Positions 1 through 26,691 of a stretch of DNA of 64,000 bases are shown here, piece by piece (the first letter of the stretch is position 1; each line of letters opens with the position of its first letter). Origin of the DNA: Xanthomonas indica. Its GTDB lineage: Bacteria > Pseudomonadota > Gammaproteobacteria > Xanthomonadales > Xanthomonadaceae. Under the pieces are notes generated by a model. The model saw only the letters and a list, made by a program, of their open reading frames with translations, was not told where the DNA came from and searched no databases. The DNA is taken from positions 1,968,501 through 2,032,500 of the forward strand of contig NZ_CP131914.1 of assembly GCF_040529045.1 (NCBI RefSeq), given 5' to 3'. The position numbers and the translations under genes were made by a program.

Positions 1-134
1 CGCACGAAGGCGTTGGGCTTGTCCAGCAGCATGCGCGGCGCCACGAACTGCCACAGCGGCATCATCAGTTGGGTGCGCTCGCGGGCGAACCAGGCCTCGT
101 CGATGTACGCCTCGGCCGGCATCAGCGACTGCAT
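1..134 (-). CDS. Rieske-type aromatic ring-hydroxylating oxygenase, alpha subunit N-terminus (partial)
   Basis: Only the first 44 codons are in the window; the gene continues off the left edge. The translation from the ATG at 134-132 has an acidic helix, an EAWFARER segment, then PLWQFVA. This matches the N-terminal pattern that precedes the Rieske [2Fe-2S] domain in ring-hydroxylating oxygenase large subunits (usually Y/W..EEWFERER..LF...W). The Rieske cysteines and histidines would lie beyond the edge and cannot be checked. It is divergent from purT, with 193 bp between. Substrate unknown. The call rests on a short conserved segment and is moderate. Confidence 0.55.
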   Translation of the reverse strand, partial: MQSLMPAEAYIDEAWFARERTQLMMPLWQFVAPRMLLDKPNAFV

Positions 135-266
135 GGACGCTCCCCGGCGGTGCGGCAGGGCGTGCCGTGGCGGTTTTCGGCGCTGCGTGCGTGCATGGCG
201 ACATCCCCAGTGACGCTGCAGAAGATAGCACTTCGCTGCGTGCCGGCGATGGCGCGGCCGCGCCGC

Positions 267-295
267 TGCCGGCGCGGGGCGCCGGGCCGTTAGAA
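267..295 (+). promoter_or_regulatory. Candidate purT promoter
   Basis: A TAGAAT hexamer at 290-295 is a good sigma-70 -10 element and lies 33 bp before the purT start codon. The -35 position, 17 bp further upstream (TGCCGG), is weak. No PUR-box-like palindrome was recognised. Confidence 0.3.
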
Positions 296-327
296 TGGTG
301 CCCCCTCTTCGCGCAGGCGCCGCCGCC

Positions 328-1515
328 ATGGTCACTCTGGGAACCCCGTTGTCCGCTTCCGCCACCCGCGTGCTGCTGCTCGGCTCCGGCGAACTGGGCA
401 AGGAAGTGGCGATCGAACTGCAGCGCTTCGGCGTGGAAGTGATCGCGGTCGACCGTTACGCCGATGCGCCGGCGATGCAGGTCGCGCACCGCAGCCACGT
501 GGTCGACATGCTCGATGCGATGGCGCTGCGCGAGCTGATCGCGCGCGAGCAGCCGCACCTGATCGTGCCGGAGATCGAGGCGATCCATACCGAGACCCTG
601 GTGGCGCTGGAGCGCGACCTCGGCCAGCGGGTGATTCCGACCGCGCGCGCGGCGCGGCTGACCATGGACCGCGAAGGCATCCGCCGCCTGGCCGCCGAGA
701 CCCTGGGCCTGCCGACGTCGCCGTATCGCTTCGTCGACACGCCAGAGGAGTACCGCGACGCGATCGCCGCGGTGGGCCTGCCGTGCGTGGTCAAGCCGGT
801 GATGTCGTCCTCCGGCAAGGGCCAGAGCACCCTGCGCAGCGCCGCCGACATCGATGCGGCCTGGGAGTACGCGCAGACCGGCGGCCGCGCCGGCGCCGGC
901 CGCTGCATCGTCGAGGGCTTCATCGATTTCGACTACGAGATCACCCTGCTGACCGTGCGCCACGCCGGCGGCACCGCGTTCTGCGATCCGATCGGGCACT
1001 GGCAGAAGGACGGCGACTACCGCGAGAGCTGGCAGCCGCAGCCGATGTCGGCGCTGGCCCTGCAGCGGGCGCAGGACATCGCCCGCGCGGTCACCGACGA
1101 TCTCGGCGGCTGGGGCCTGTTCGGCGTGGAGCTGTTCGTCAAGGGTGACGAGGTCTGGTTCAGCGAAGTGTCGCCGCGGCCGCACGACACCGGCCTGGTC
1201 ACCCTGGTGTCGCAGGAACTGAGCGAGTTCGCCCTGCATGCGCGCGCGATCCTCGGCCTGCCGATCCCGGTGATCCGCCAGAGCGGCCCATCGGCCTCGT
1301 GCGCGCTGCTGGCGCACGGCGAGGGCGTGCCGCGCTTCGGCAATGTCGGCGCCGCGCTGCAGGCCCCGGACACCGCCCTGCGCCTGTTCGGCAAGCCCAG
1401 CGTGCATGGCCACCGCCGCGTCGGCGTCACCCTGGCCCGCGGCGCCGATATCGAACAGGCGCGCCAGACCGCCCGCGACGCCGCCGCGGCCCTCACCATC
1501 GATCTAGACGCATAA
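328..1515 (+). CDS. purT: Formate-dependent phosphoribosylglycinamide formyltransferase (GAR transformylase 2)
   Basis: PurT makes formyl-GAR from GAR, formate and ATP in de novo purine synthesis in the cytoplasm, the folate-independent alternative to PurN. The 395-residue product matches the family length. The N-terminal region reads [15 protein letters not shown] (residues 16-30) followed by [10 protein letters not shown], both hallmark PurT segments. The ATP-grasp loop SSSGKGQ is at 160-166, and [10 protein letters not shown], supplying metal and ATP ligands, follows near residue 285. The ATG at 328 aligns with known PurT starts; an upstream in-frame start at 295 would add 11 residues overlapping the likely promoter. 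It stands alone and converges on the minus-strand signalling operon. Confidence 0.95.
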
Positions 1516-1557
1516 AACTGCGAGCGCTTGGGAAGCGGTGCCAAAGGGGACCCGCTT

Positions 1558-1590
1558 TCCCATTCCCCACTCCCGATTCCCCATTCCCGG
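1558..1590. repeat. GGGAATG-type degenerate heptad repeat
   Basis: Four short imperfect copies of CCATTCCC / CACTCCCGATT sit in the purT to minus-operon convergent gap. The same word family recurs at 15447-15475 and 15590-15621, where it forms inverted arms, and more weakly near 18795. It looks like a dispersed intergenic repeat. Confidence 0.6.
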
Positions 1591-1594
1591 CCCC

Positions 1595-2230
1595 TCAAGC
1601 CGGCGGCGCAAACCGTGCCGCCGCCAGGCGGATGCTCCACACCAGTTCCACCATCGCCAGGTTGTTGAGCAGCGCCTCGCCGCCCAACACCAGCCAGTAG
1701 CCGGCGCCGTCGACCCAGAACGGCACGAACGACCAGTCCGGCAGCAGCAGTTGCGGCTCGCTGTAGAACGCCACGTAGCGGTGCGCGCCGTGCCAGCCGC
1801 GTGCGCTCTGGCGCTGGGCGAAGCCGGCGAAGTCGGCCGCGGCCACGCTCAGCGTCTCGGCCTGCTCCTGGTCCAGGCCGGCATGGCCCAGGCAGAAGCC
1901 GCTGTCGGAGGCCAGCACCGCGCGGCGTTCGGCCGACAGCGGCGCGATCACGTGCTGGGCGAAATCGTCCAGGCGGATTTCCGGGCCCGGCACGGCGCGC
2001 CGCAGCAACTGCACCCATTGCTGGTCGCGGGCGTCCTGCAGCAGGCGCTGCGCGTCGCCGCCCACGCGCTGGCGCCATTCCTGCAGCGACAACGCACCGT
2101 GCGCACCGAGCAGCAGTTGCAACGCGCGCTGCATGCGGTCGGGCGTGGCGCTGGCGAAGCCGTGCAACACGCCGTGCGGGGTCGGCATCAGCCAGGTCGA
2201 TTCGGAGCTGGTCGGTTCGGGGGCAGTCAT
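1595..2230 (-). CDS. Orphan protein, possible divergent roadblock/LC7 domain; last gene of the signalling operon
   Basis: The 211-residue protein is soluble, with no signal peptide or membrane segment. The N-terminal half is helical. The C-terminal half (from about residue 105) contains LASDSGFCLGHAGLDQEQAE, an alanine-rich helix, a beta-rich stretch, and a final helix around MVELVWSIRLAAARF. The order 'SDxG-hydrophobic-aGld-x-E-x-A-E' then an Ala-rich helix is the pattern of roadblock/LC7 domains; I infer a divergent copy. The start is the ATG at 2230, whose first bases overlap the upstream stop by 4 bp (ATGA), so the two genes are translationally coupled. Catalytic residues are not apparent. 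Function unknown; the roadblock reading needs a profile or fold comparison. Confidence 0.7.
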   Translation of the reverse strand: MTAPEPTSSESTWLMPTPHGVLHGFASATPDRMQRALQLLLGAHGALSLQEWRQRVGGDAQRLLQDARDQQWVQLLRRAVPGPEIRLDDFAQHVIAPLSAERRAVLASDSGFCLGHAGLDQEQAETLSVAAADFAGFAQRQSARGWHGAHRYVAFYSEPQLLLPDWSFVPFWVDGAGYWLVLGGEALLNNLAMVELVWSIRLAAARFAPPA

Positions 2231-2868
2231 CGCGGCGCACTCGCGCTGGAAAAGGAGAGGGCGTCGACGCTGCGGCCGCCCAGCGGCTCGCGTTGCTGCA
2301 GCCAGCGTGCGGTGCGGTCCCAGCGGTCGCCCAGGGCCAGTGCGTGGCGGCGCAGTTCGCGGGTGGCGAGCATGAAGGCGAGCTTGTCCTGGCAACTGAT
2401 GCAGTAGTCCAGGAACTCGCGCTCGCAACGCGCCGCGGCGATCGGCGCACCGTCGCACAGTGCGTCCACCACCTCGCGCACCATCCGCCGCGAATGGTCC
2501 GGGCTGGCCCGGCGCACCCGCGCCGGCACGTCGGCCGACGGCCGCGCCAGCACGCTCCAGCGCGTGGCCAGGGCGTTGATCGGCAGCAGCGCATGCCCCT
2601 GGCTGTGGCGCTGGAACGCCTCGGCCACGTGTGGCGGCAGATGCGCTGCCGCCATCTGCAGCGCCAGCTGGCGCAGGGCGATGTCGTGTCGCGGCAAGGC
2701 CACGAACAGGTCGGCGAGCACGCCCTGGGTCGGTTCGTTGTCGTGCAGCTGCAGCGCGGCGTGCAGCCGCGCCAGGTGCGCGGCGGCGTCGCGCGGGTCG
2801 CGCAGCAGGGCGCGGGCATGGGTGCGCATCACCAGGCGTGCGGGATCGCGGGCGGCAGGAGTGGCCAT
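2227..2868 (-). CDS. Uncharacterised helical cytoplasmic protein of the roadblock/PAS operon
   Basis: I do not recognise this 213-residue family. It is alanine- and arginine-rich and mostly predicted helix, without signal peptide or membrane helix. A CISC motif (CxxC) lies in the segment CEREFLDYCISCQDKLAF near residue 155, with another Cys seven residues before it. This trio could bind a metal or be redox active. The ATG at 2868 is 7 bp after the stop of the binding-protein gene, and its own stop overlaps the next start by 4 bp, so it is certainly part of the operon. Possible roles are a scaffold or partner of the roadblock proteins; this is inference from context only. Confidence 0.75.
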   Translation of the reverse strand: MATPAARDPARLVMRTHARALLRDPRDAAAHLARLHAALQLHDNEPTQGVLADLFVALPRHDIALRQLALQMAAAHLPPHVAEAFQRHSQGHALLPINALATRWSVLARPSADVPARVRRASPDHSRRMVREVVDALCDGAPIAAARCEREFLDYCISCQDKLAFMLATRELRRHALALGDRWDRTARWLQQREPLGGRSVDALSFSSASAPR

Positions 2869-2875
2869 GGGCGCC

Positions 2876-3631
2876 TCAGTCCAGCAAGGTGTCGATCAGG
2901 TCGATCATGAATTCCGCGTCCTCCATGGCCATCGCCTCGAAACCGCGCTCCAGGCCCAGCGCGTCCAGTACCGCCTGGTCGTCGCGGTGCGCGGCATCGC
3001 CGAGCGTGAGCAGGGCCTCGCGCAGCACCGGCAGTTGTGGCCCCAGGCGTGGATGCGCCAGCAGCACATGGCCGATGTCGCACAGCGCGCTTTCCACAAG
3101 CGGACGCAGCCGCGCGCGGGTCAGCCGCGACAGGCCGTGGTAGGCGCTGGCCAGGAACAGGCCGGCGTCGGCTTCGCCTTCGAGCAGCAGCCGTGCCACT
3201 GCGGCATAGCTGCCGGCCGGGCGCCAGGCGATGCGTTCCGGCTCCAGGTCGGCCGGCTCCAGCAGGCGCAGGCCGATCAGGCGTACGTCGTGGTTGGCGG
3301 TCAGGGCGATGCGGCACCCGTAGGGCAGGTCTTCCACGCAACGCGCCGGCGCCTCGGCCGCGGTGGCGATCACCACCTCGTCGGCGTGCCCGCGCGGCCG
3401 CACCAGCGGCAGATAGCCGCGGTCGCGGATCAGCGCGCTGGCGTCGAAGGGGCTGGCGTACACCAGGTCGACGCCGCCGCCGTCCAGCAGTTGCCGCTGT
3501 TCGGTGGTGTCGGCCGGCATCAGCAGGCGCAGGCCGATGCCGGCACGGCGTTGCAACACCGTGCTGAGCAGGTACCAGCCGCCGAAGTATTCGGGCGCGA
3601 AGTCCGGCGCGACCAGGAAGGTATGGCTCAT
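2876..3631 (-). CDS. PhnD/SBP-like ligand-binding protein without signal peptide
   Basis: The 251-residue protein begins MSHTFLVAPDFAPEYFGGWY and then shows the type-2 periplasmic-binding fold pattern of PhnD-like proteins: a first lobe ending in GGGVDLVYASPFD, a mid-chain ADEVVIAT strand, and LLLEGEADAGLFL for the second lobe. PhnD-type proteins normally bind phosphonate or other small anions in the periplasm. This one has no signal peptide or lipobox, and no ABC permease or ATPase is adjacent. It therefore probably works in the cytoplasm as a ligand sensor. Its ATG overlaps the PAS gene stop by 4 bp. The fold is fairly sure; the ligand is unknown. Confidence 0.75.
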   Translation of the reverse strand: MSHTFLVAPDFAPEYFGGWYLLSTVLQRRAGIGLRLLMPADTTEQRQLLDGGGVDLVYASPFDASALIRDRGYLPLVRPRGHADEVVIATAAEAPARCVEDLPYGCRIALTANHDVRLIGLRLLEPADLEPERIAWRPAGSYAAVARLLLEGEADAGLFLASAYHGLSRLTRARLRPLVESALCDIGHVLLAHPRLGPQLPVLREALLTLGDAAHRDDQAVLDALGLERGFEAMAMEDAEFMIDLIDTLLD

Positions 3632-4128
3632 GCCGGCGTCTCCGCGTGCTCGTCCTGCAGCCATTGCGCGTACAGCGGCTGCAGCGCATCGATGCGTCGC
3701 CGCGAAGGCTTGCGTCGCACCGAGGTGAAGCCGACCACGCGGCCGTCGCGCACGTTCGGCAGCGCGGTGGCGTAGACCCAGTAGCAGGCGCCGTCGCGGC
3801 GCAGGTTCTTGACGTAGCCGTGCCACTTGTCGCCGGCCAGCACGGTCTCCCACAGCGCGCGGAACGCGCGCCGCGGCATCTCCGGGTGGCGCAGGATGCA
3901 GTGCGGCGCACCGATCAGCAGTTCGCGCGGCCAGCCGCTGAGTTCGACGAAGGCGTCGTTGGCGTGGGTGATGACGCCGTCCAGGTCGGTGCGCGAAACG
4001 ATCAGGCGCCCGTCCGGGTAGGCCACCTCCCGTTCGCTCCAGTACACCGTGCGGCGGCTGCCGTCGTGGTAGCGCAGTTCGGTGCTGCGGTGCGGCTCGT
4101 GCGGCGGATCCATCGGCGGCAGCGGCAT
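3628..4128 (-). CDS. Stand-alone Aer-like PAS-domain redox/oxygen sensor
   Basis: The 166-residue protein is one PAS domain (about residues 42-145) with short flanks. It closely follows the FAD-binding PAS of the aerotaxis receptor Aer: TDLDGVITHANDAF, SGW, then RHPEMPRRAF (Aer has RHPDMP), W near 105, KNLRRDGACYWV and a final GFTSVRRKPS. In Aer this domain carries FAD and reports redox or oxygen status. The HAMP and methyl-accepting domains of Aer are absent, so output must go through a partner. It lies 9 bp downstream of the roadblock gene and overlaps the binding-protein start, placing it centrally in a five-gene operon. Domain assignment is strong; partner and output are inferred. Confidence 0.9.
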   Translation of the reverse strand: MPLPPMDPPHEPHRSTELRYHDGSRRTVYWSEREVAYPDGRLIVSRTDLDGVITHANDAFVELSGWPRELLIGAPHCILRHPEMPRRAFRALWETVLAGDKWHGYVKNLRRDGACYWVYATALPNVRDGRVVGFTSVRRKPSRRRIDALQPLYAQWLQDEHAETPA

Positions 4129-4137
4129 GGCGGCCCC

Positions 4138-4500
4138 CTACAGGATCTGCTGCAGCGCCTGCGCGGCGCGCTTGATGTCCAGGAACACCAGGCCCAGCCT
4201 GGCGCTGGGCTTGGCCAGCACGGTGAGCACCGCCTCGCGGCCGGCCGCACTCATGATCACGTAGCCCGACTCGCCCTGGATCAGTACCCGCTCCAGCGCG
4301 CCGCGCGCCAGTTCGCGCGCGCTGCGCTCGCCCAGCGCGAGCAGCGCCGCGGACATCGCGCCGACGCGGTCCTCGTCCATGCCCTGCGGCATCGCCGAGG
4401 CGATCATCAGCCCGTCCAGGGAGATCAGCGCCGAGGCCTCGATGTCGGCGGTGGCGCCGTTGAGGCCTTCCAGCGCCTGTTGCAACTGTTGCGTTCGCAT
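4138..4500 (-). CDS. Roadblock/LC7 domain protein
   Basis: This 120-residue protein is almost exactly one roadblock/LC7 domain: an N-terminal helix, the strand-turn SALISLDGLMIASAMPQGMDEDRVGAM, an alanine-rich helix, and VLIQGESGYVIMSAAG followed by LTVLAKPSARLGLVFLD. Such proteins (MglB-like) usually dimerise and act on small Ras-like GTPases, or serve as two-component adaptors; no such GTPase is encoded in this window. It is the first gene of a tight minus-strand operon. An AAGG Shine-Dalgarno sequence precedes the ATG at 4500, and a perfect FNR-type box lies 70-83 bp upstream. Confidence 0.9.
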   Translation of the reverse strand: MRTQQLQQALEGLNGATADIEASALISLDGLMIASAMPQGMDEDRVGAMSAALLALGERSARELARGALERVLIQGESGYVIMSAAGREAVLTVLAKPSARLGLVFLDIKRAAQALQQIL

Positions 4501-4541
4501 GCTCGCCTTCCGCTTGCGCATCCCGACCGGGTGCGGAGGGC

Positions 4542-4583
4542 ATTGGACCGCGTCGGCGCGGGCTTGCCCTTGATCTGGATCAA
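4542..4583 (-). promoter_or_regulatory. ANR/FNR-type box and class II promoter for the roadblock-PAS operon
   Basis: TTGATCTGGATCAA at 4570-4583 is a perfect match to the FNR/ANR consensus TTGAT-N4-ATCAA. On the minus strand it is 32 bp (centre to centre) upstream of TCCAAT at 4547-4542, a 4/6 match to TATAAT. That is the geometry of a class II activated promoter, with the box at about -41.5 and a start near 4535. The 312-bp gap between 4500 and 4813 otherwise holds only the terminator of the upstream gene. Confidence 0.6.
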
Positions 4584-4742
4584 GGCCGATGCCGGCGCGC
4601 GGCGCGGAAGGTCTGAGGCGCGGCCTCGATTCGCCGGTGTTTGCCAAAAGGCGGGTAGTTCCCATGCCCGTGGCGCCTTCGGCCAGGCGATCGATGCAGT
4701 TGCACTGGCGGCAAGCCAGTCCCCGGGGACATGGCGGCCGGT

Positions 4743-4778
4743 GTGGCAAAAAGAACAGGCGGCCGATCGGCCGCCTGT
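4743..4778 (-). terminator. Intrinsic terminator of the nuclease-like lipoprotein gene
   Basis: A perfect 24-bp palindrome (4755-4778: ACAGGCGGCC, GATC, GGCCGCCTGT) is followed in the minus direction by TTCTTTTTG. This is a strong rho-independent terminator 35 bp after the stop at 4813, separating that gene from the next operon. Confidence 0.85.
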
Positions 4779-4812
4779 GGGGTGCTGCAAGGGCCGCGCG
4801 GGGTGCGCCGCG

Positions 4813-6045
4813 CTACGGCCCCGCGGCGACGTCGACCCAGACCAGATGGTGGTCGCTGCCGTCGGCGATGGCGGCGGCGGGATCGCTGGACGCCGGCCAG
4901 AACACGCCGCTGCCCAGGTAGCGGAAGTTGCGCGACGGCAACACGTAATCCAGGCGCATGGTGCCGGCCTTGGGGCCGAAATCGCCGGTGACCTGCTGCG
5001 GCGGGCCGCGATGGCCGATGCCGGTGGCCGCGTAGGCGCGGGTGGTTTCCTCGCCGCCGGCGCTGTGCGGGGTGGGGTATTGCAGCACGCGCGGATGCGT
5101 CACCAGGGCGCGGATCGCGTCGTGGCGGCCGTCGCCGTCGATCACGTCGTTGTTGAGGTCGCCGAGCATCACGAACTGCGCATCGGCGGCCAGTCCGCCG
5201 CAGCGGCCGGCGTCGTCGCACAGCCAGCGCGCCTTGCCGCTGCCGGCATCGTCCAGGTAATCGCGCCACAGCCGCAGTTCGTCGTGGTTGCGTGCGGCGT
5301 TGCGTTTTTCCGCGCCGTCGAACACTGGCGGGGTCGGATGCGACACCAGCGCATGCAGCACGCCCAGTGGGGTACGCACGGGGACGTCCCAATGCGATTT
5401 CGACGACAGCCGCAGTTGCGCCCACACTGCGTCGCTGTGGAAGAAGCGGCCGGTGGCCGGATCGACCGGGCGCAGCGCGTCGGGCATCGCGCTCCACTTC
5501 AGCAGGCGGAAGCTGCGCACCGCCGCGGCGTCGATCGGGTACCTGGACAGCAGCAGCATGCCGTACTGGCCGGCATGCAGGCCGAAACCCCAGGCGTCGT
5601 TGCCGCGCGCACGGCCTTCGCCGCCGACGTGGCCGTCGTTGTCCAGGTCCAGGCCGCTGGGCACGCCGGTATTGACCGGCGCCAGGTAGCGGTAGGGATA
5701 GCGCAGTGCCGCACCGCCATGCGGCTGCGGCACCGCCAGGTAGCGCTGTTCGAACAGGTCGGCGGCGCGGTGCGCGTCGTCGTAGTCGAATTCGTTGAGC
5801 AGCACGATGTCAGGTCGCACCTGCTGCAGCACCGCGGCGATCTTGCGCGCCTGCGCGCTGTCGCCCTGCAGCGCGGCGATCAGGCCGCCGGGTGCGTCGG
5901 CATTGAGCGAGGTGTTGTAGGTGGCCAAGCGCAGCGTCGTGGCGGCTGGCGCGGGGGCGTCGGTCATCGCAGGGGAGCTGGGAGCGGTGTGCGCGCAGGC
6001 GCCGCACAGCAGGGTCAGGGCAAGCAGGAGGAGGCGTGATGTCAT
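4813..6045 (-). CDS. Endonuclease/exonuclease/phosphatase-family lipoprotein
   Basis: The 410-residue product has an N-terminal hydrophobic stretch ending in LTLLCGAC, a lipobox that predicts a lipid-anchored envelope protein. The mature part is an EEP (DNase I-like) fold: LRLATYNTS, NEFD (metal-ligand Glu), GDLNND (catalytic Asp/Asn) and SDHHLVW (terminal Asp-His pair). These residues suit a Mg-dependent phosphodiesterase or phosphatase; substrates in the family range from DNA to phospholipids and cannot be fixed here. The ATG at 6045 directly gives the lipoprotein signal. It is transcribed alone; the gene upstream (bpt) is 91 bp away. Confidence 0.85.
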   Translation of the reverse strand: MTSRLLLLALTLLCGACAHTAPSSPAMTDAPAPAATTLRLATYNTSLNADAPGGLIAALQGDSAQARKIAAVLQQVRPDIVLLNEFDYDDAHRAADLFEQRYLAVPQPHGGAALRYPYRYLAPVNTGVPSGLDLDNDGHVGGEGRARGNDAWGFGLHAGQYGMLLLSRYPIDAAAVRSFRLLKWSAMPDALRPVDPATGRFFHSDAVWAQLRLSSKSHWDVPVRTPLGVLHALVSHPTPPVFDGAEKRNAARNHDELRLWRDYLDDAGSGKARWLCDDAGRCGGLAADAQFVMLGDLNNDVIDGDGRHDAIRALVTHPRVLQYPTPHSAGGEETTRAYAATGIGHRGPPQQVTGDFGPKAGTMRLDYVLPSRNFRYLGSGVFWPASSDPAAAIADGSDHHLVWVDVAAGP

Positions 6046-6136
6046 GCGCCAAGTTTCGCACGCGCTGCATGTCCGCACGATGGCGCGGCGACGTGCGGCG
6101 GCAGCGGCTGGGCAGCGCGGTATCGGTTGCCGGCGG

Positions 6137-6898
6137 CTAGCCGCCGAGCTGGCGCAGGTAGTCGTCGAAGTCGCGCCAGTGGCGGCCGTCGTAGGCCTGC
6201 AGCGGCCGGAAGCGGCGCTTGTAGTCCATCTTCTGGTGGCCGCGGATCCAGTAGCCCAGGTACAGATGGCGCAGGCCGTCGCGTCGCGCCCAGGCGATCT
6301 GCTGCAGGATCGCCAGCGTGCCCAGGCCGCGCGCGGCGGCGTCCGGGTCGTAGAAGGTGTAGACCGCCGACAATGCCTGCGCGGTGATGTCGGTGACGGC
6401 CACCGCCAGCAGCGGCCCACGCCTTCCATCCGGCATGCGTTGCCGCAGTTCCAGAAAGCGGCCGTGCGACCAGCGGCCGATCAGGAACTGATCGAACTCG
6501 TGCGCGCCGTGATCGTCCATGCCGCCGCCGGGATGGCGATGCTGCAGGTAGCGCTGGTACAGCGCCAGCTGTTCCTCGCTGCGTTCGGCGGCGACGATGC
6601 GCACCTCGACATCGGCATTGCGCGCCAGGCAGCGGCGCTGGCTGCGATCGGGTACGAAGTCCTCGACCGGGATGCGCACCGCCACGCAGGCACGGCAGTG
6701 ATCGCAGTGCGGGCGATAGACCAGGTCGCCGGAGCGGCGGAAGCCCCAGCTCAACGCCAGCGGATACAGCGCGCCCAGGCGCGGGTCGTGCGGGTCCAGC
6801 ACCAGGTCGCGGGCTTGCCGCTCGGGCCAGTAGCCGCACGCGTGCTGGCCGGTCTGGAACAGCCGCAGGTCGTCGCTGGCGTCGGAATGGATGGCCAT
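6137..6898 (-). CDS. bpt: Aspartate/glutamate leucyltransferase (bacterial protein transferase)
   Basis: Bpt transfers leucine from Leu-tRNA to proteins with N-terminal Asp or Glu, marking them for ClpS/ClpAP (the N-degron pathway), in the cytoplasm. The 253-residue protein shows family features: [14 protein letters not shown] near the N-terminus, the cysteine cluster [14 protein letters not shown] (about 65-78), [11 protein letters not shown], and the C-terminal [20 protein letters not shown]. The ATG at 6898 is preferred over an in-frame ATG 25 codons upstream because homologues begin with MAI-like starts and the Cys motif near residue 20. Confidence 0.92.
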
Positions 6899-7098
6899 GC
6901 GCCGAGCATAGCGCTTCGCCATCGCAGGGGCCGCGACTGTCCCGTCCATGAATACGCCCGGCGGTTGGGTCAACCACGGCGACGGCGGGGCGTTGTCTGC
7001 AGGGAAGGCGCCACGGCGCCGGCCCGTTGCGCGGGCCGCCCGCGGCGCCGGACGCCTGCCGTCCTGGCAGGTTCCTCATCATCCTCAGGGAGTGACCC

Positions 7099-7713
7099 AT
7101 GAAGTCTCGCAACCCGCTGCTCGCCCTGGCCGTGCTGGCCGTCCTGTCCGGTGCCGCCTACGCCGTTCCGCCGCCGCCGGCCGATCCCGCCGCGCCCGCC
7201 GCTGCCGGCGGCATCGCCGCGCTCGACAAGAACGGCGATGGCGTCATCGACCGCAGCGAAGCCGCCGCCGATCCGCGCCTGGCCGAACATTTCGACGCGC
7301 TGGACAAGAACCACGACGGCAAGCTCAGCCGCGACGAGTGGCCGCGGCACGGCCGCCACGGCGGTCCGGGTGGCCCCGGTGGACACGGCGTGCCCGGCGC
7401 GATGATGGCCAAGCTGGACACCAACAAGGACGGCCGCATCAGCCGCGCCGAAGCGCAGGCCGATCCCAAGCTCGCCGCGCGCTTCGACAAGATGGACGTG
7501 AACAAGGACGGCTACATCGACCGTGCCGACTTCGAGCTGCGCGCCAAGCAGCATCGCGATGCCTGGTTCACCGCGGCCGATACCAACAAGGACGGCATGC
7601 TCAGCCGCGCCGAGTTCGATGCGGCACAGGCCAAGCGCTGGGCGCATCGCCCGGGCGGACCGCGCGGTGGCGACACGCCGCCGCCGCCGATGCCGGCGCC
7701 GGACAACAACTGA
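7099..7713 (+). CDS. Exported EF-hand calcium-binding protein (five loops)
   Basis: The 204-residue protein has a signal peptide (hydrophobic core LLALAVLAVLSGAAYA, cleavage after AYA), then a Pro/Ala linker. Five canonical 12-residue EF-hand loops follow: DKNGDGVIDRSE, DKNHDGKLSRDE, DTNKDGRISRAE, DVNKDGYIDRAD and DTNKDGMLSRAE. A Gly/Pro-rich spacer sits between loops 2 and 3, and the tail is Pro-rich. It should bind calcium in the periplasm; the biological role is unknown. A GGGAG Shine-Dalgarno sequence precedes the ATG at 7099. It is followed by a clear terminator and has no operon partner. Confidence 0.9.
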   Translation: MKSRNPLLALAVLAVLSGAAYAVPPPPADPAAPAAAGGIAALDKNGDGVIDRSEAAADPRLAEHFDALDKNHDGKLSRDEWPRHGRHGGPGGPGGHGVPGAMMAKLDTNKDGRISRAEAQADPKLAARFDKMDVNKDGYIDRADFELRAKQHRDAWFTAADTNKDGMLSRAEFDAAQAKRWAHRPGGPRGGDTPPPPMPAPDNN

Positions 7714-7761
7714 GTCATTCGCCGCAACACGGCTTCACTGCATCAAGGCGCCGATCGACCG

Positions 7762-7793
7762 CGCCCCTGTACCGCAAGGTGCAGGGGCGTTTT
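7762..7793 (+). terminator. Intrinsic terminator of the EF-hand gene
   Basis: A 12-bp stem (CGCCCCTGTACC paired with GGTGCAGGGGCG, one G-T pair) around a GCAA tetraloop is followed by TTTTG, 49 bp after the stop codon. Confidence 0.85.
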
Positions 7794-7949
7794 GCTGTGG
7801 GGAGGCGGGCATTCGCGCGCTGTCGCGACGCAGCGCCGCGGCATGCAAGCGTGGGTGGCGTGCGCAGTGCGGCGCAGACAGGCAGGATGCTGCAGCAGTA
7901 AGGGCACCGCCGCAGCCGATGCGCGCGGTACGGCGCCGCGCGCGCTGCC

Positions 7950-8471
7950 TCAGTTGCCGCGCGGCGCCGGCTGCACGCGCACGCGCACTTCGTCGCTGCC
8001 GGTGTCCTGCGCCGGTGGCGTGGCCTGCTGGGTCGCGGCGGGCTGGGCCGGTACGGCGGTAGGCGCGCGGTTGTCGCGGTGGCGCAGCACCGTCACCAGC
8101 GCCGCCGCGCCGATCGCCAGCAGCAGGGCGATGCGGATGCGCCAGGCCCAGCGCTTGCCGGCGTCCACTTCCACCTGCGAGCGGAACTCGTTCAAGTACG
8201 GCGCACGGCCCTGTTCGGGGTCGCGGCGGGTGCTGTCGAGCAGGCCGGCGTCGCGCAGCAGTTCGCGCGCACGCGGCTGGTCGTTGGCATGCACCACCCA
8301 CACCGTGGGCTGGGCCTGTGCCGCCACCGGGTCGAGATAGCTGAACTGGCCGCTGCGGCGGCTGCGGTAGGAGCGGCCGTTGCTCAGCCGCACCTCGATA
8401 CCGGCATCGCGCAGCAGCGCGGCCACGCCTTCGGCGGTTTCCACGCGCTGGCTGCTGAAGATCTGACGCAT
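7950..8471 (-). CDS. DUF2007-like N-terminal domain protein with one membrane anchor
   Basis: The 173-residue protein starts MRQIFSSQRVETAEGVAALL with DAGIEVRLSNGRSY, the usual opening of DUF2007 (putative signal-transducing) domains. A second PTVWVVHANDQPRARELL segment follows. One membrane helix (about 113-128, IALLLAIGAAALVTVL) leads to a Pro/Ala/Gln-rich, probably periplasmic tail. Similar Xanthomonas proteins are often labelled 'pathogenicity-like', a name not supported by any motif seen here. It is 10 bp downstream of tesB and probably co-transcribed. Function unknown. Confidence 0.75.
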   Translation of the reverse strand: MRQIFSSQRVETAEGVAALLRDAGIEVRLSNGRSYRSRRSGQFSYLDPVAAQAQPTVWVVHANDQPRARELLRDAGLLDSTRRDPEQGRAPYLNEFRSQVEVDAGKRWAWRIRIALLLAIGAAALVTVLRHRDNRAPTAVPAQPAATQQATPPAQDTGSDEVRVRVQPAPRGN

Positions 8472-8481
8472 GTCGGTGTCC

Positions 8482-9366
8482 TCAGCGCTTCGCCGGAACC
8501 TGCGCCGCGGCGCCGGCGTCGGGCACCACGCGGATCAGACCTTCCTGCGCGGTGCTGGCCACCAGGGTGCCGTCGCGGGTAAAGAACTGCCCGCGCGCCA
8601 GGCCGCGCGCACCCTGCGCGCTGGGGCTGTCCAGCGAGTACAGCAGCCAGTCGTCGGCGCGGAACGGGCGATGGAACCACAGCGCGTGATCGAGCGAGGC
8701 CATCTGCACGTTCGGCGTGTAGTAGCTGATGCCGTGCGGGAAGGTGGCGGTGCCGAGCAGGTGGAAGTCCGAGGCATAGGCGAGCAGCGCCTGGTGCAGT
8801 TCCGGCGCATCGCCGACCGGCTCGCTCAGGCGCAGCCACATCTGCTGGAACGGCGGGCGCTTGGGCGGATTCAGTTCGTCGCGCGGATACACGTGGCGGA
8901 ACTCGAACGGGCCGCCGCGCGAGAGCCAGCGCTGCACCTTGGTCGGCAGCGTCGCCAGCACTTCCGGGCGGGCCGCCGGGGTCGGTTCGATGTCTTCCGG
9001 CTGCGGCACTTCCGGCATCTTCAGCTGGTGGGTGGCGCCGTCTTCCTGCTCCTGGAACGAGGCCGCGCAGAAGAAGATCACCTTGCCGTGCTGGATCGCG
9101 GTGACCCGGCGCACCGAGAAGCTGCCGCCGTCGCGGGTGCGGTCCACGTCGTAGACGATGGGATGCTCGATGTCGCCGGCGCGCAGGAAGTAGGCGTGCA
9201 GCGAATGCACGCGGCGGGCGTTCTCGACCGTGGCCTGCGCCGCCGACAGCGCCTGGCCCAGCACCTGGCCGCCGAACACGTACTTGGTGCCGATGTCGCG
9301 GCTCTGGCCGCGGAACAGGTTGTCCTCCAGCCGCTCCAGCGACAGCAGCTCGATCAGTTCGGACAC
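8482..9366 (-). CDS. tesB: Acyl-CoA thioesterase II
   Basis: TesB hydrolyses medium- and long-chain acyl-CoA to free fatty acid and CoA in the cytoplasm. The 294-residue protein has the double hot-dog organisation: FRGQSRDIGTKYVFGGQVLGQAL (shown in part: YVFGGQVLGQAL), HSLHAYFLRAGD, then YASDFHLL, LDHALWFHRPFRADDWLLY and STAQEGLIR. The catalytic Asp and Gln of E. coli TesB map to YASD and STAQEG; the third catalytic residue (Thr before the IDHSMW segment) appears as Ser in MASLDHALW. No ATG fits; the start is the GTG at 9366. It lies just upstream of the DUF2007-like gene. Confidence 0.93.
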   Translation of the reverse strand: MSELIELLSLERLEDNLFRGQSRDIGTKYVFGGQVLGQALSAAQATVENARRVHSLHAYFLRAGDIEHPIVYDVDRTRDGGSFSVRRVTAIQHGKVIFFCAASFQEQEDGATHQLKMPEVPQPEDIEPTPAARPEVLATLPTKVQRWLSRGGPFEFRHVYPRDELNPPKRPPFQQMWLRLSEPVGDAPELHQALLAYASDFHLLGTATFPHGISYYTPNVQMASLDHALWFHRPFRADDWLLYSLDSPSAQGARGLARGQFFTRDGTLVASTAQEGLIRVVPDAGAAAQVPAKR

Positions 9367-26615: not shown

Positions 26616-26691
26616 GCCGGAATAGCTCAGTCGGTAGAGCGGCGCATTCGTAATGCGTAGGTCGCAGGTTCGACTCCTGTTTCCGGCACCA
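26616..26691 (+). tRNA. tRNA-Thr (anticodon CGU)
   Basis: A 76-nt cloverleaf: acceptor GCCGGAA pairs with TTCCGGC, the D-loop is AGCTCAGTCGGTAGAGC, the anticodon arm is CGCAT-TCGTAATG with loop TTCGTAA (anticodon CGT, reading ACG), the T-arm is CAGG-TTCGACT-CCTG, and the 3' CCA is encoded. A 10-bp GAAGGCAGCC hairpin follows. Confidence 0.96.

What the first reader, a model, noticed from the sequence alone, without database searches (positions are those of the whole stretch)
1595..4500. Five-gene roadblock / Aer-PAS / cytoplasmic PhnD-like / orphan operon: a possible undescribed signalling system
Seen: five tightly packed minus-strand genes, three junctions with 4-bp overlaps or small gaps (roadblock, PAS, binding protein, two orphans). 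Known: roadblock proteins regulate small GTPases or act as adaptors, Aer-type PAS domains bind FAD and sense redox, and PhnD-like proteins bind small anions. Inferred: a cytoplasmic module that joins redox status and a ligand to a roadblock output, with no GTPase, kinase or transporter in cis. I know of no described system with this combination.
Basis: partly seen in the sequence, partly recalled or inferred. Interest (0 to 1): 0.8.

Follow-up and report, generated by a model that had tools for sequence, protein, structure and literature searches.

The report
Roadblock sensor operon without its GTPase
These five bacterial genes look like the surviving part of a seven-gene signalling operon found in many related bacteria, with the molecular switch (a small GTPase) that normally sits in the middle missing, so they could show what such "roadblock" proteins do on their own.

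Summary
In detail: five packed minus-strand genes (roadblock, Aer-type PAS, signal-less PhnD-like protein, two orphans). The order is not unique: one continuous DNA match covers the unit in 14 of 20 held genus genomes (own included); the other 6 have no intact copy. Homologues of all five lie in a wider gammaproteobacterial operon, orf4 - recwh - MglA-type GTPase - orf5 - roadblock - PAS - PhnD-like, complete in 35 of 80 named loci. The module is therefore a derivative of a "Group 3 MglA" system (core reported in 2014) without GTPase and recwh; in 20 genus genomes the GTPase profile gave only two weak partial matches and the recwh profile nothing. Orphan orf5 is a divergent roadblock protein by predicted fold; orf4 is all-helical and fused to orf5 in two genomes. 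The GTPase is also missing in marine Oceanospirillales-type loci and two other genera, so roadblock modules appear to outlive it repeatedly. Best reading: PAS (FAD/redox) and PhnD-like (cytosolic ligand, not a classical phosphonate site) are paired inputs to a two-roadblock adaptor. In 11 of 80 loci a FimV/HubP polar-landmark-like gene follows, hinting at polarity. I found no biochemistry.

The parts
4138..4500 (-). roadblock/LC7 (MglB-like) protein, 120 aa
   Evidence: Pfam Robl_LC7 2e-16; the only PF03259 match in the genome
3628..4128 (-). stand-alone Aer-type PAS protein, 166 aa, predicted FAD/redox sensor
   Evidence: Aer PAS 8dik E 4.4e-33; equivalents of Aer H53, N85, R115 are H76, N108, R138, kept in 66, 67 and 67 of 67 homologue rows, 63 distinct (Aer residues from passages of PMC9668731)
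2876..3631 (-). signal-less PhnD-like (periplasmic-binding-protein fold) protein, 251 aa
   Evidence: Pfam Phosphonate-bd 9e-31; no hydrophobic N-terminal stretch and no STS-H motif
2227..2868 (-). orf4, all-helical protein, 213 aa
   Evidence: homologue at the head of the seven-gene operon by iterated profile; AF2 pLDDT 84.2, pTM 0.58, helices only; several TPR proteins among the hits but none significant, best E 0.83
1595..2230 (-). orf5, divergent second roadblock protein with an N-terminal helical part (winged-helix-like in my reading of the secondary structure, not searched apart), 211 aa
   Evidence: AF2 pLDDT 86.8, pTM 0.81; top Foldseek hits are roadblock/MglB structures, 3kye prob 1.00, E 5.8e-3; 14 of 68 family members hit Robl_LC7 weakly, the window protein not
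4755..4778 (-). terminator-like hairpin between the upstream gene and the operon
   Evidence: 1 found; shuffles give a mean of 1.0, so weak on its own

Best explanation
The five genes encode a cytosolic sensor-adaptor complex that descends from a Group 3 MglA (Ras-like GTPase) operon and has lost the GTPase and its REC/winged-helix-like partner (recwh). Shown by comparison: homology of the five genes with the seven-gene operon (weakest for orf4), failure to find the GTPase in the genome, near-strict pairing of the PAS and PhnD-like genes, presence or absence of the unit as a whole in the genus, and a roadblock fold of orf5 (predicted). Inferred: the two roadblock proteins (robl and orf5) form a dimeric platform held by the helical orf4; the PAS reads cellular redox state through FAD, and the PhnD-like protein reads a cytosolic small ligand that is not a classical phosphonate or phosphite. 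Together they change the state of the platform. In the ancestral system that platform would set the GTPase cycle; in this genome it must act on another partner.
For: PAS and PhnD-like genes occur both or neither in 78 of 80 named loci (50 both, 28 neither, 2 PhnD-like only). One continuous DNA match covers the unit in 14 of 20 genus genomes, the window's own and one of its species included; the other 6 have no intact gene of it. orf4 and orf5 are one ORF in L088 and L094. orf5 fold is roadblock (weak sequence support). The GTPase profile gives nothing in 18 of 20 genus genomes and weak partial matches in 2, nothing in G019, G160, G205, G377 and in two Marinobacterium genomes, while genomes known to hold the GTPase rang (G433, G434; G042, G271). 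FAD-contacting residues of Aer are conserved.
Against: No biochemical or genetic data. Complex formation is inferred from gene order, one fusion and one predicted fold. orf4 of this genus is only 8-24% identical to the orf4 of complete operons; the link rests on an iterated profile (14, then 90 sequences) plus position. Gene order differs here (orf4 and orf5 at the end). Wuichet 2014 lists Xanthomonas among Group 3 MglA hosts, whereas 20 genomes of this genus (Xanthomonas by my recall) gave no full match. Searches held no positive control of their own. In the four-gene tree this genus lies next to the GTPase-less Oceanospirillales with only a weakly placed GTPase-bearing locus beside it (supports 0.55 and 0.27), so two separate losses are not proved for that pair. 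Of six GTPase-less Oceanospirillales-type genomes searched, four do hold a GTPase of this kind elsewhere.
Confidence: 0.6

Rival explanations
1. The module still regulates a GTPase in trans: a diverged small GTPase, or another P-loop switch, elsewhere in the genome replaced the lost one.
For: 421 of 749 MglB-family proteins were coupled to an MglA in PMC4316618. Four of six GTPase-less Oceanospirillales-type genomes searched hold ten GTPases of this kind elsewhere, nine of them in ORFs of 327-370 aa.
Against: Profile and single-sequence searches found none in this genome. PF00071 matches above cut-off lie only in long ORFs. Two Marinobacterium genomes, G160, G205 and G019 have none by the same profile.
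Confidence: 0.15
2. The ancestral and present output is cell-pole organisation (type IV pili or surface motility), with the sensor module tuning polar recruitment through FimV/HubP-type landmarks.
For: FimV/HubP-like genes follow the operon on the same strand in 11 of 80 named loci (12 genes; 9 loci from Thiotrichaceae-type records, 2 from Burkholderiales). 11 of the 12 genes were scanned and all 11 pass a curated cut-off of a FimV/HubP model. MglA/MglB set polarity in Myxococcus (PMC2907295, abstract start in a search listing).
Against: The link was seen in 11 of 80 loci only, mostly one group of bacteria, and no FimV gene adjoins the operon in this genome. No phenotype data. One search listed no paper joining FimV with MglA (30 papers held three of the five terms, 12 listed, none of those 12 with FimV).
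Confidence: 0.3
3. A decaying remnant: once the GTPase is lost, the remaining genes drift and have no joint function.
For: Loss in 6 of 20 genus genomes, with a frame-broken orf5 scrap in G001. Long branch of this genus in the four-gene tree.
Against: dN/dS 0.05-0.12 for all five genes against L028; roadblock protein 97-100% identical in the 12 same-genus genomes that have it; the 14 genomes that keep the unit match it over its whole length (ORF integrity was checked protein by protein only for L027 and L028, and in part for L003-L013).
Confidence: 0.05

Closest known systems
Group 3 MglA systems of beta/gamma-proteobacteria (Wuichet and Sogaard-Andersen 2014, PMC4316618; passages read)
   Same: A conserved REC plus winged-helix-like protein, an MglA-type GTPase (no Asp in G3, DAR in G5; both patterns are common in the relatives' GTPases) and one or two MglB/roadblock proteins make the core of the operon that the relatives carry.
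   Different: The window version lacks GTPase and recwh. 'PAS domain', 'phosphonate' and 'substrate-binding' do not occur in that paper's main text; its supplementary tables were not seen.
Actinobacterial conservons (CvnA-D; PMC4316618 passages, PMC13343842 abstract start in a listing)
   Same: Sensor protein, roadblock (CvnB) and small GTPase (CvnD) in one operon; copies that lost the GTPase gene are reported.
   Different: The sensor there is a membrane histidine-kinase-like protein; here it is a cytosolic PAS plus a binding-protein fold, without kinase.
E. coli Aer PAS domain (PMC9668731, passages)
   Same: Sequence match E 4.4e-33 and the residues near FAD (H53, N85, R115) conserved.
   Different: Stand-alone 166-aa protein, no HAMP, membrane or chemoreceptor signalling part.
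PtxB/PhnD phosphite/phosphonate-binding proteins (PMC5700983, passages)
   Same: Same Pfam family; the profile's only PDB match at E up to 0.001 is PtxB, 1.4e-4.
   Different: No hydrophobic N-terminus, no transporter nearby, STS-H oxyanion motif replaced by D-V-x and Y.

Membership tests
Group 3 MglA system | MglA-type small GTPase coupled to the roadblock gene | tested here: not met
   none in cis; none found in this genome. Present in 59 of 80 named related loci (recount from the order list)
Group 3 MglA system | one or two MglB/roadblock proteins | tested here: met
   robl by Pfam, orf5 by predicted fold
Group 3 MglA system | conserved REC-like plus winged-helix partner | tested here: not met
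   0 of 20 genus genomes (no positive control in that call). In relatives the protein next to the GTPase has no Pfam or NCBIfam match; its REC/winged-helix nature is taken from the paper's description, not folded here
Aer-type FAD PAS | FAD-contacting His, Asn, Arg | tested here: met
   H76, N108, R138; 66, 67 and 67 of 67 homologue rows; correspondence read by eye
Aer-type FAD PAS | bound FAD and redox response | not testable with these tools
   needs protein
PhnD/PtxB binding protein | STS-H oxyanion motif | tested here: not met
   alignment to 5o2j and column counts in 74 homologue rows
PhnD/PtxB binding protein | export signal and ABC transporter partners | tested here: not met
   (hydropathy only, no signal-peptide predictor); gene map of 1-9000 only
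Roadblock/LC7 superfamily (orf5) | Pfam match of the window protein | tested here: not met
   P0005 has no match; 14 of 68 members match PF03259 at E up to 0.01, best 1.7e-4
Roadblock/LC7 superfamily (orf5) | roadblock fold | tested here: met
   confident AF2 model; Foldseek top hits roadblock/MglB, though no match reaches E 0.001 and TM by query length is about 0.4; VIA-align was unavailable
Conservon | histidine-kinase-like sensor CvnA | tested here: not met
   no kinase domain among the five genes

The most novel reading that the evidence does not exclude
Roadblock proteins can form a GTPase-independent redox-plus-ligand signalling complex: after repeated loss of the Ras-like GTPase, the paired PAS and PhnD-like sensors and the two roadblock proteins keep working as a stand-alone adaptor with a new output.
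Probability: 0.4. Interest if true: 0.78.

Novelty: new variant of a known kind. Interest (0 to 1): 0.62.

Why it matters
Wuichet 2014 counted 328 of 749 MglB homologues as uncoupled to an MglA and wrote that no orphan MglB had been characterised by experiment. Here is a natural series, from complete operon to GTPase-less operon, in which sensors and roadblocks stay under selection without the GTPase. It supplies candidate inputs (flavin redox, a cytosolic ligand) for Group 3 MglA systems, adds a roadblock protein that Pfam does not recognise in this genome (orf5), and points to polar landmarks as a possible output. Culturable methanotrophs such as Methylotuvimicrobium buryatense 5G (L166) carry the complete form, so the question can be tested directly.

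Tried and rejected
A GTPase elsewhere in the window's genome was looked for three ways and not found. A fused GTPase inside the long recwh ORFs of the Oceanospirillales-type loci was considered and rejected because the GTPase profile found nothing in two of those genomes. PHROGs gave nothing for orf4 and orf5. The orf4 model gave no significant structural match. Literature: (roadblock, Xanthomonas and PAS domain together) found 0 papers. Searches (94 papers, 20 listed; 5; 1; 5; 30, 12 listed; 1) listed none whose title or abstract start describes the operon with PAS and PhnD-like members. The claim that it is undescribed rests on those listings only; the library misses most subscription journals. 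Rfam finds one tRNA in the window. No sigma-70-like promoter was found in 1400-4900; the scan does not cover other promoter types.
Full report
What is there. The window is a stretch of a 4.81-Mb single-contig genome. No tool names the organism; I take it for Xanthomonas from recall of its genes. Five genes lie head to tail on the minus strand between 4500 and 1595: roadblock (120 aa), PAS (166 aa), PhnD-like (251 aa), orf4 (213 aa), orf5 (211 aa), with junctions of +9, -4, +7 and -4 nt. Pfam confirms the first three and is silent on orf4 and orf5. All five are under purifying selection (dN/dS 0.05-0.12 against L028, 0.08-0.42 against L027, 0.21-0.59 against the sister-genus locus L014).

Conservation in the genus. 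A DNA search with 5.75 kb that includes both flanking genes covers the whole unit in one match in 14 of 20 held genomes, which include the window's own and one other of its species. The other six (G001, G002, G008, G009, G016, G017) also lack the roadblock protein. In G002, G016 and G017 the flanking genes lie about 65-130 bases apart. G001 keeps a scrap of orf5 broken over three frames, with about 1.2 kb before the next flanking gene. In G008 the contigs end at the site, and the 72 matching bases left there may be no more than a dispersed repeat. In G009 the flanks are far apart. The genome G019 of another genus has the same five genes (L014). So the unit is kept or lost as a whole in this sample.

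The wider operon. The roadblock protein led to distant relatives, and their neighbourhoods showed a small GTPase and a protein matching orf5. A profile of orf5 rings in 40 of 369 gammaproteobacterial genomes, 32 of 272 genera, own included. I read 40 loci from those genomes (recounted): 11 have orf4 - recwh - GTPase - orf5 - roadblock - PAS - PhnD-like in that order, 14 have the first five genes, and 15 are cut, rearranged or lack the GTPase. 67 of 80 hold orf5. PAS and PhnD-like genes come both or neither in 78 of 80. Hosts by record title include methanotrophs, Thiotrichaceae, Chromatiales and two Burkholderiales.

What the GTPase is. Its G1 is of the GxxxxGKT[TS] type in 96 of 100 sequences, and its G3 reads GTPGQ in 93 of 100, so the usual G3 aspartate is missing. 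The DAR pattern comes first in 61 of 100 and NSR in 25 (regular expressions, not an aligned G5 column, and the 100 include duplicates and other MglA-type operons). The profile also matches Thermus MglA, 3t12, at 3e-8, although Rab proteins score higher. Wuichet and Sogaard-Andersen give the missing G3 aspartate for MglA and DAR for Groups 2 and 3, and describe Group 3 systems as a REC-like plus winged-helix protein, an MglA and one or two MglBs (PMC4316618; passages read). I therefore place the relatives' operon in Group 3; no MglA tree was built. The paper lists Xanthomonas among Group 3 hosts; my profile found only two weak partial matches inside ORFs of 347 and 958 aa in 20 genomes of the window's genus. 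This discrepancy is unresolved.

Missing GTPase. The profile finds no full match in 20 of 20 genus genomes (no positive control of its own), none in G019, G160, G205 and G377 (G377 is 79% complete) and none in the two Marinobacterium genomes, while genomes known to carry it rang. Four other Oceanospirillales-type genomes do hold GTPases of this kind away from the operon. Among 102 loci with recwh, orf5 and a roadblock hit, 87 have the GTPase and 15 do not; without duplicates 84 and 15. Of the 15, L141 is a short, rearranged contig, and L103, L105 and L106 carry a different roadblock protein. On a four-gene tree the GTPase-less loci fall apart: the window's genus, the Oceanospirillales-type clade, L083 (next to the GTPase-bearing L144, support 0.89) and L141. 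The window's genus and the Oceanospirillales-type clade are, however, near neighbours with supports of 0.27-0.55, so two separate losses for that pair rest mainly on the different gene order and on recwh, which the latter keep. In the Oceanospirillales-type loci, mean identity to GTPase-bearing relatives falls most for orf5 (46 to 34%), then orf4 (28 to 22), and little for roadblock (79 to 76), PAS (64 to 60) and PhnD-like (54 to 52). In the window's genus the falls are orf5 46 to 23, roadblock 79 to 63, PhnD-like 54 to 40, orf4 28 to 18, PAS 64 to 56. I read this as the roadblock pair, orf5 above all, having faced the GTPase; fast genes show larger drops anyway, so it is weak evidence.

The orphans. 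orf5: the AF2 model (pLDDT 86.8, pTM 0.81, 68 sequences) has an N-terminal helical part and a C-terminal order of elements like a roadblock domain. The first 13 Foldseek hits are roadblock or MglB structures (3kye prob 1.00, E 5.8e-3; none under 0.001). The profile's best PDB sequence hit is CvnB5 at 1.3e-3, the next Ragulator proteins at 0.1 or weaker, and 14 of 68 members match Robl_LC7 weakly. orf4: helices only (pLDDT 84.2, pTM 0.58); TPR proteins are among its hits but none is significant. The two are one ORF in L088 and L094; both genomes (G069, G425) are of one family, so probably one event, and those loci show neither GTPase nor roadblock gene in the stretch held.

The sensors. The PAS matches E. 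coli Aer PAS at 4.4e-33. The Aer residues near the flavin (H53, N85, R115; PMC9668731, passages) correspond to H76, N108, R138, kept in 66, 67 and 67 of 67 homologue rows, 63 of them distinct. The PhnD-like protein has no signal-like stretch (0 of 74 rows, 70 distinct, with a 12-residue hydropathy over 1.8). The STS-H motif that holds the ligand oxygens in PtxB (PMC5700983, passages) aligns to D-V-R and Y here; in the family D is found in 63, V in 66 and Y in 65 of 74 rows. Its first tyrosine (Y58, 72 of 74) is kept. The ligand is therefore probably not phosphonate or phosphite.

A clue to output. In 11 of 80 named loci a gene of one family follows the operon on the same strand, mostly within 250 bases; 11 of its 12 copies were scanned and all pass a curated cut-off of a FimV/HubP polar-landmark model (the L120 copy was not scanned). 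With the role of MglA and MglB in polarity in Myxococcus this suggests, but does not show, a polar output in the complete systems.

Conclusion. Its main value is that it makes the function of orphan roadblock proteins testable.

Noticed in passing
window 1546-1640: A short dispersed repeat at the 3' end of orf5 has many copies across this genome and the genus (many hits of about 35-80 bp at query 1232-1344).
   Followed up: no
L017, L018, L023: Other MglA-type operons in related genomes place an ABC-ATPase-like protein (fused to a phosphatase-like part in L017 and L018) and a ferredoxin-reductase/globin-like protein around GTPase and roadblock (names read from the translations by recall), a second redox-flavoured design.
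   Followed up: no
L015 5003-8245 and 8317-12459: G042 carries two nearly identical roadblock genes, each followed by a PhnD-like gene (one with PAS between), converging on a recwh-GTPase-orf5 operon.
   Followed up: partly
L083, L119, L129, L162: A second PhnD-like gene sits between orf5 and roadblock in L083, L119 and L129; L162 has one upstream of orf4.
   Followed up: no
L103, L105, L106: A variant operon recwh - a different roadblock protein - orf4 - orf5 without GTPase.
   Followed up: no
window 26616-26688: A single tRNA is the only Rfam match in the window at gathering score.
   Followed up: no
L154 9631-12618: A 996-aa Rieske-PAS-GGDEF-EAL protein converges on the operon end in a Neptuniibacter record.
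   Followed up: no
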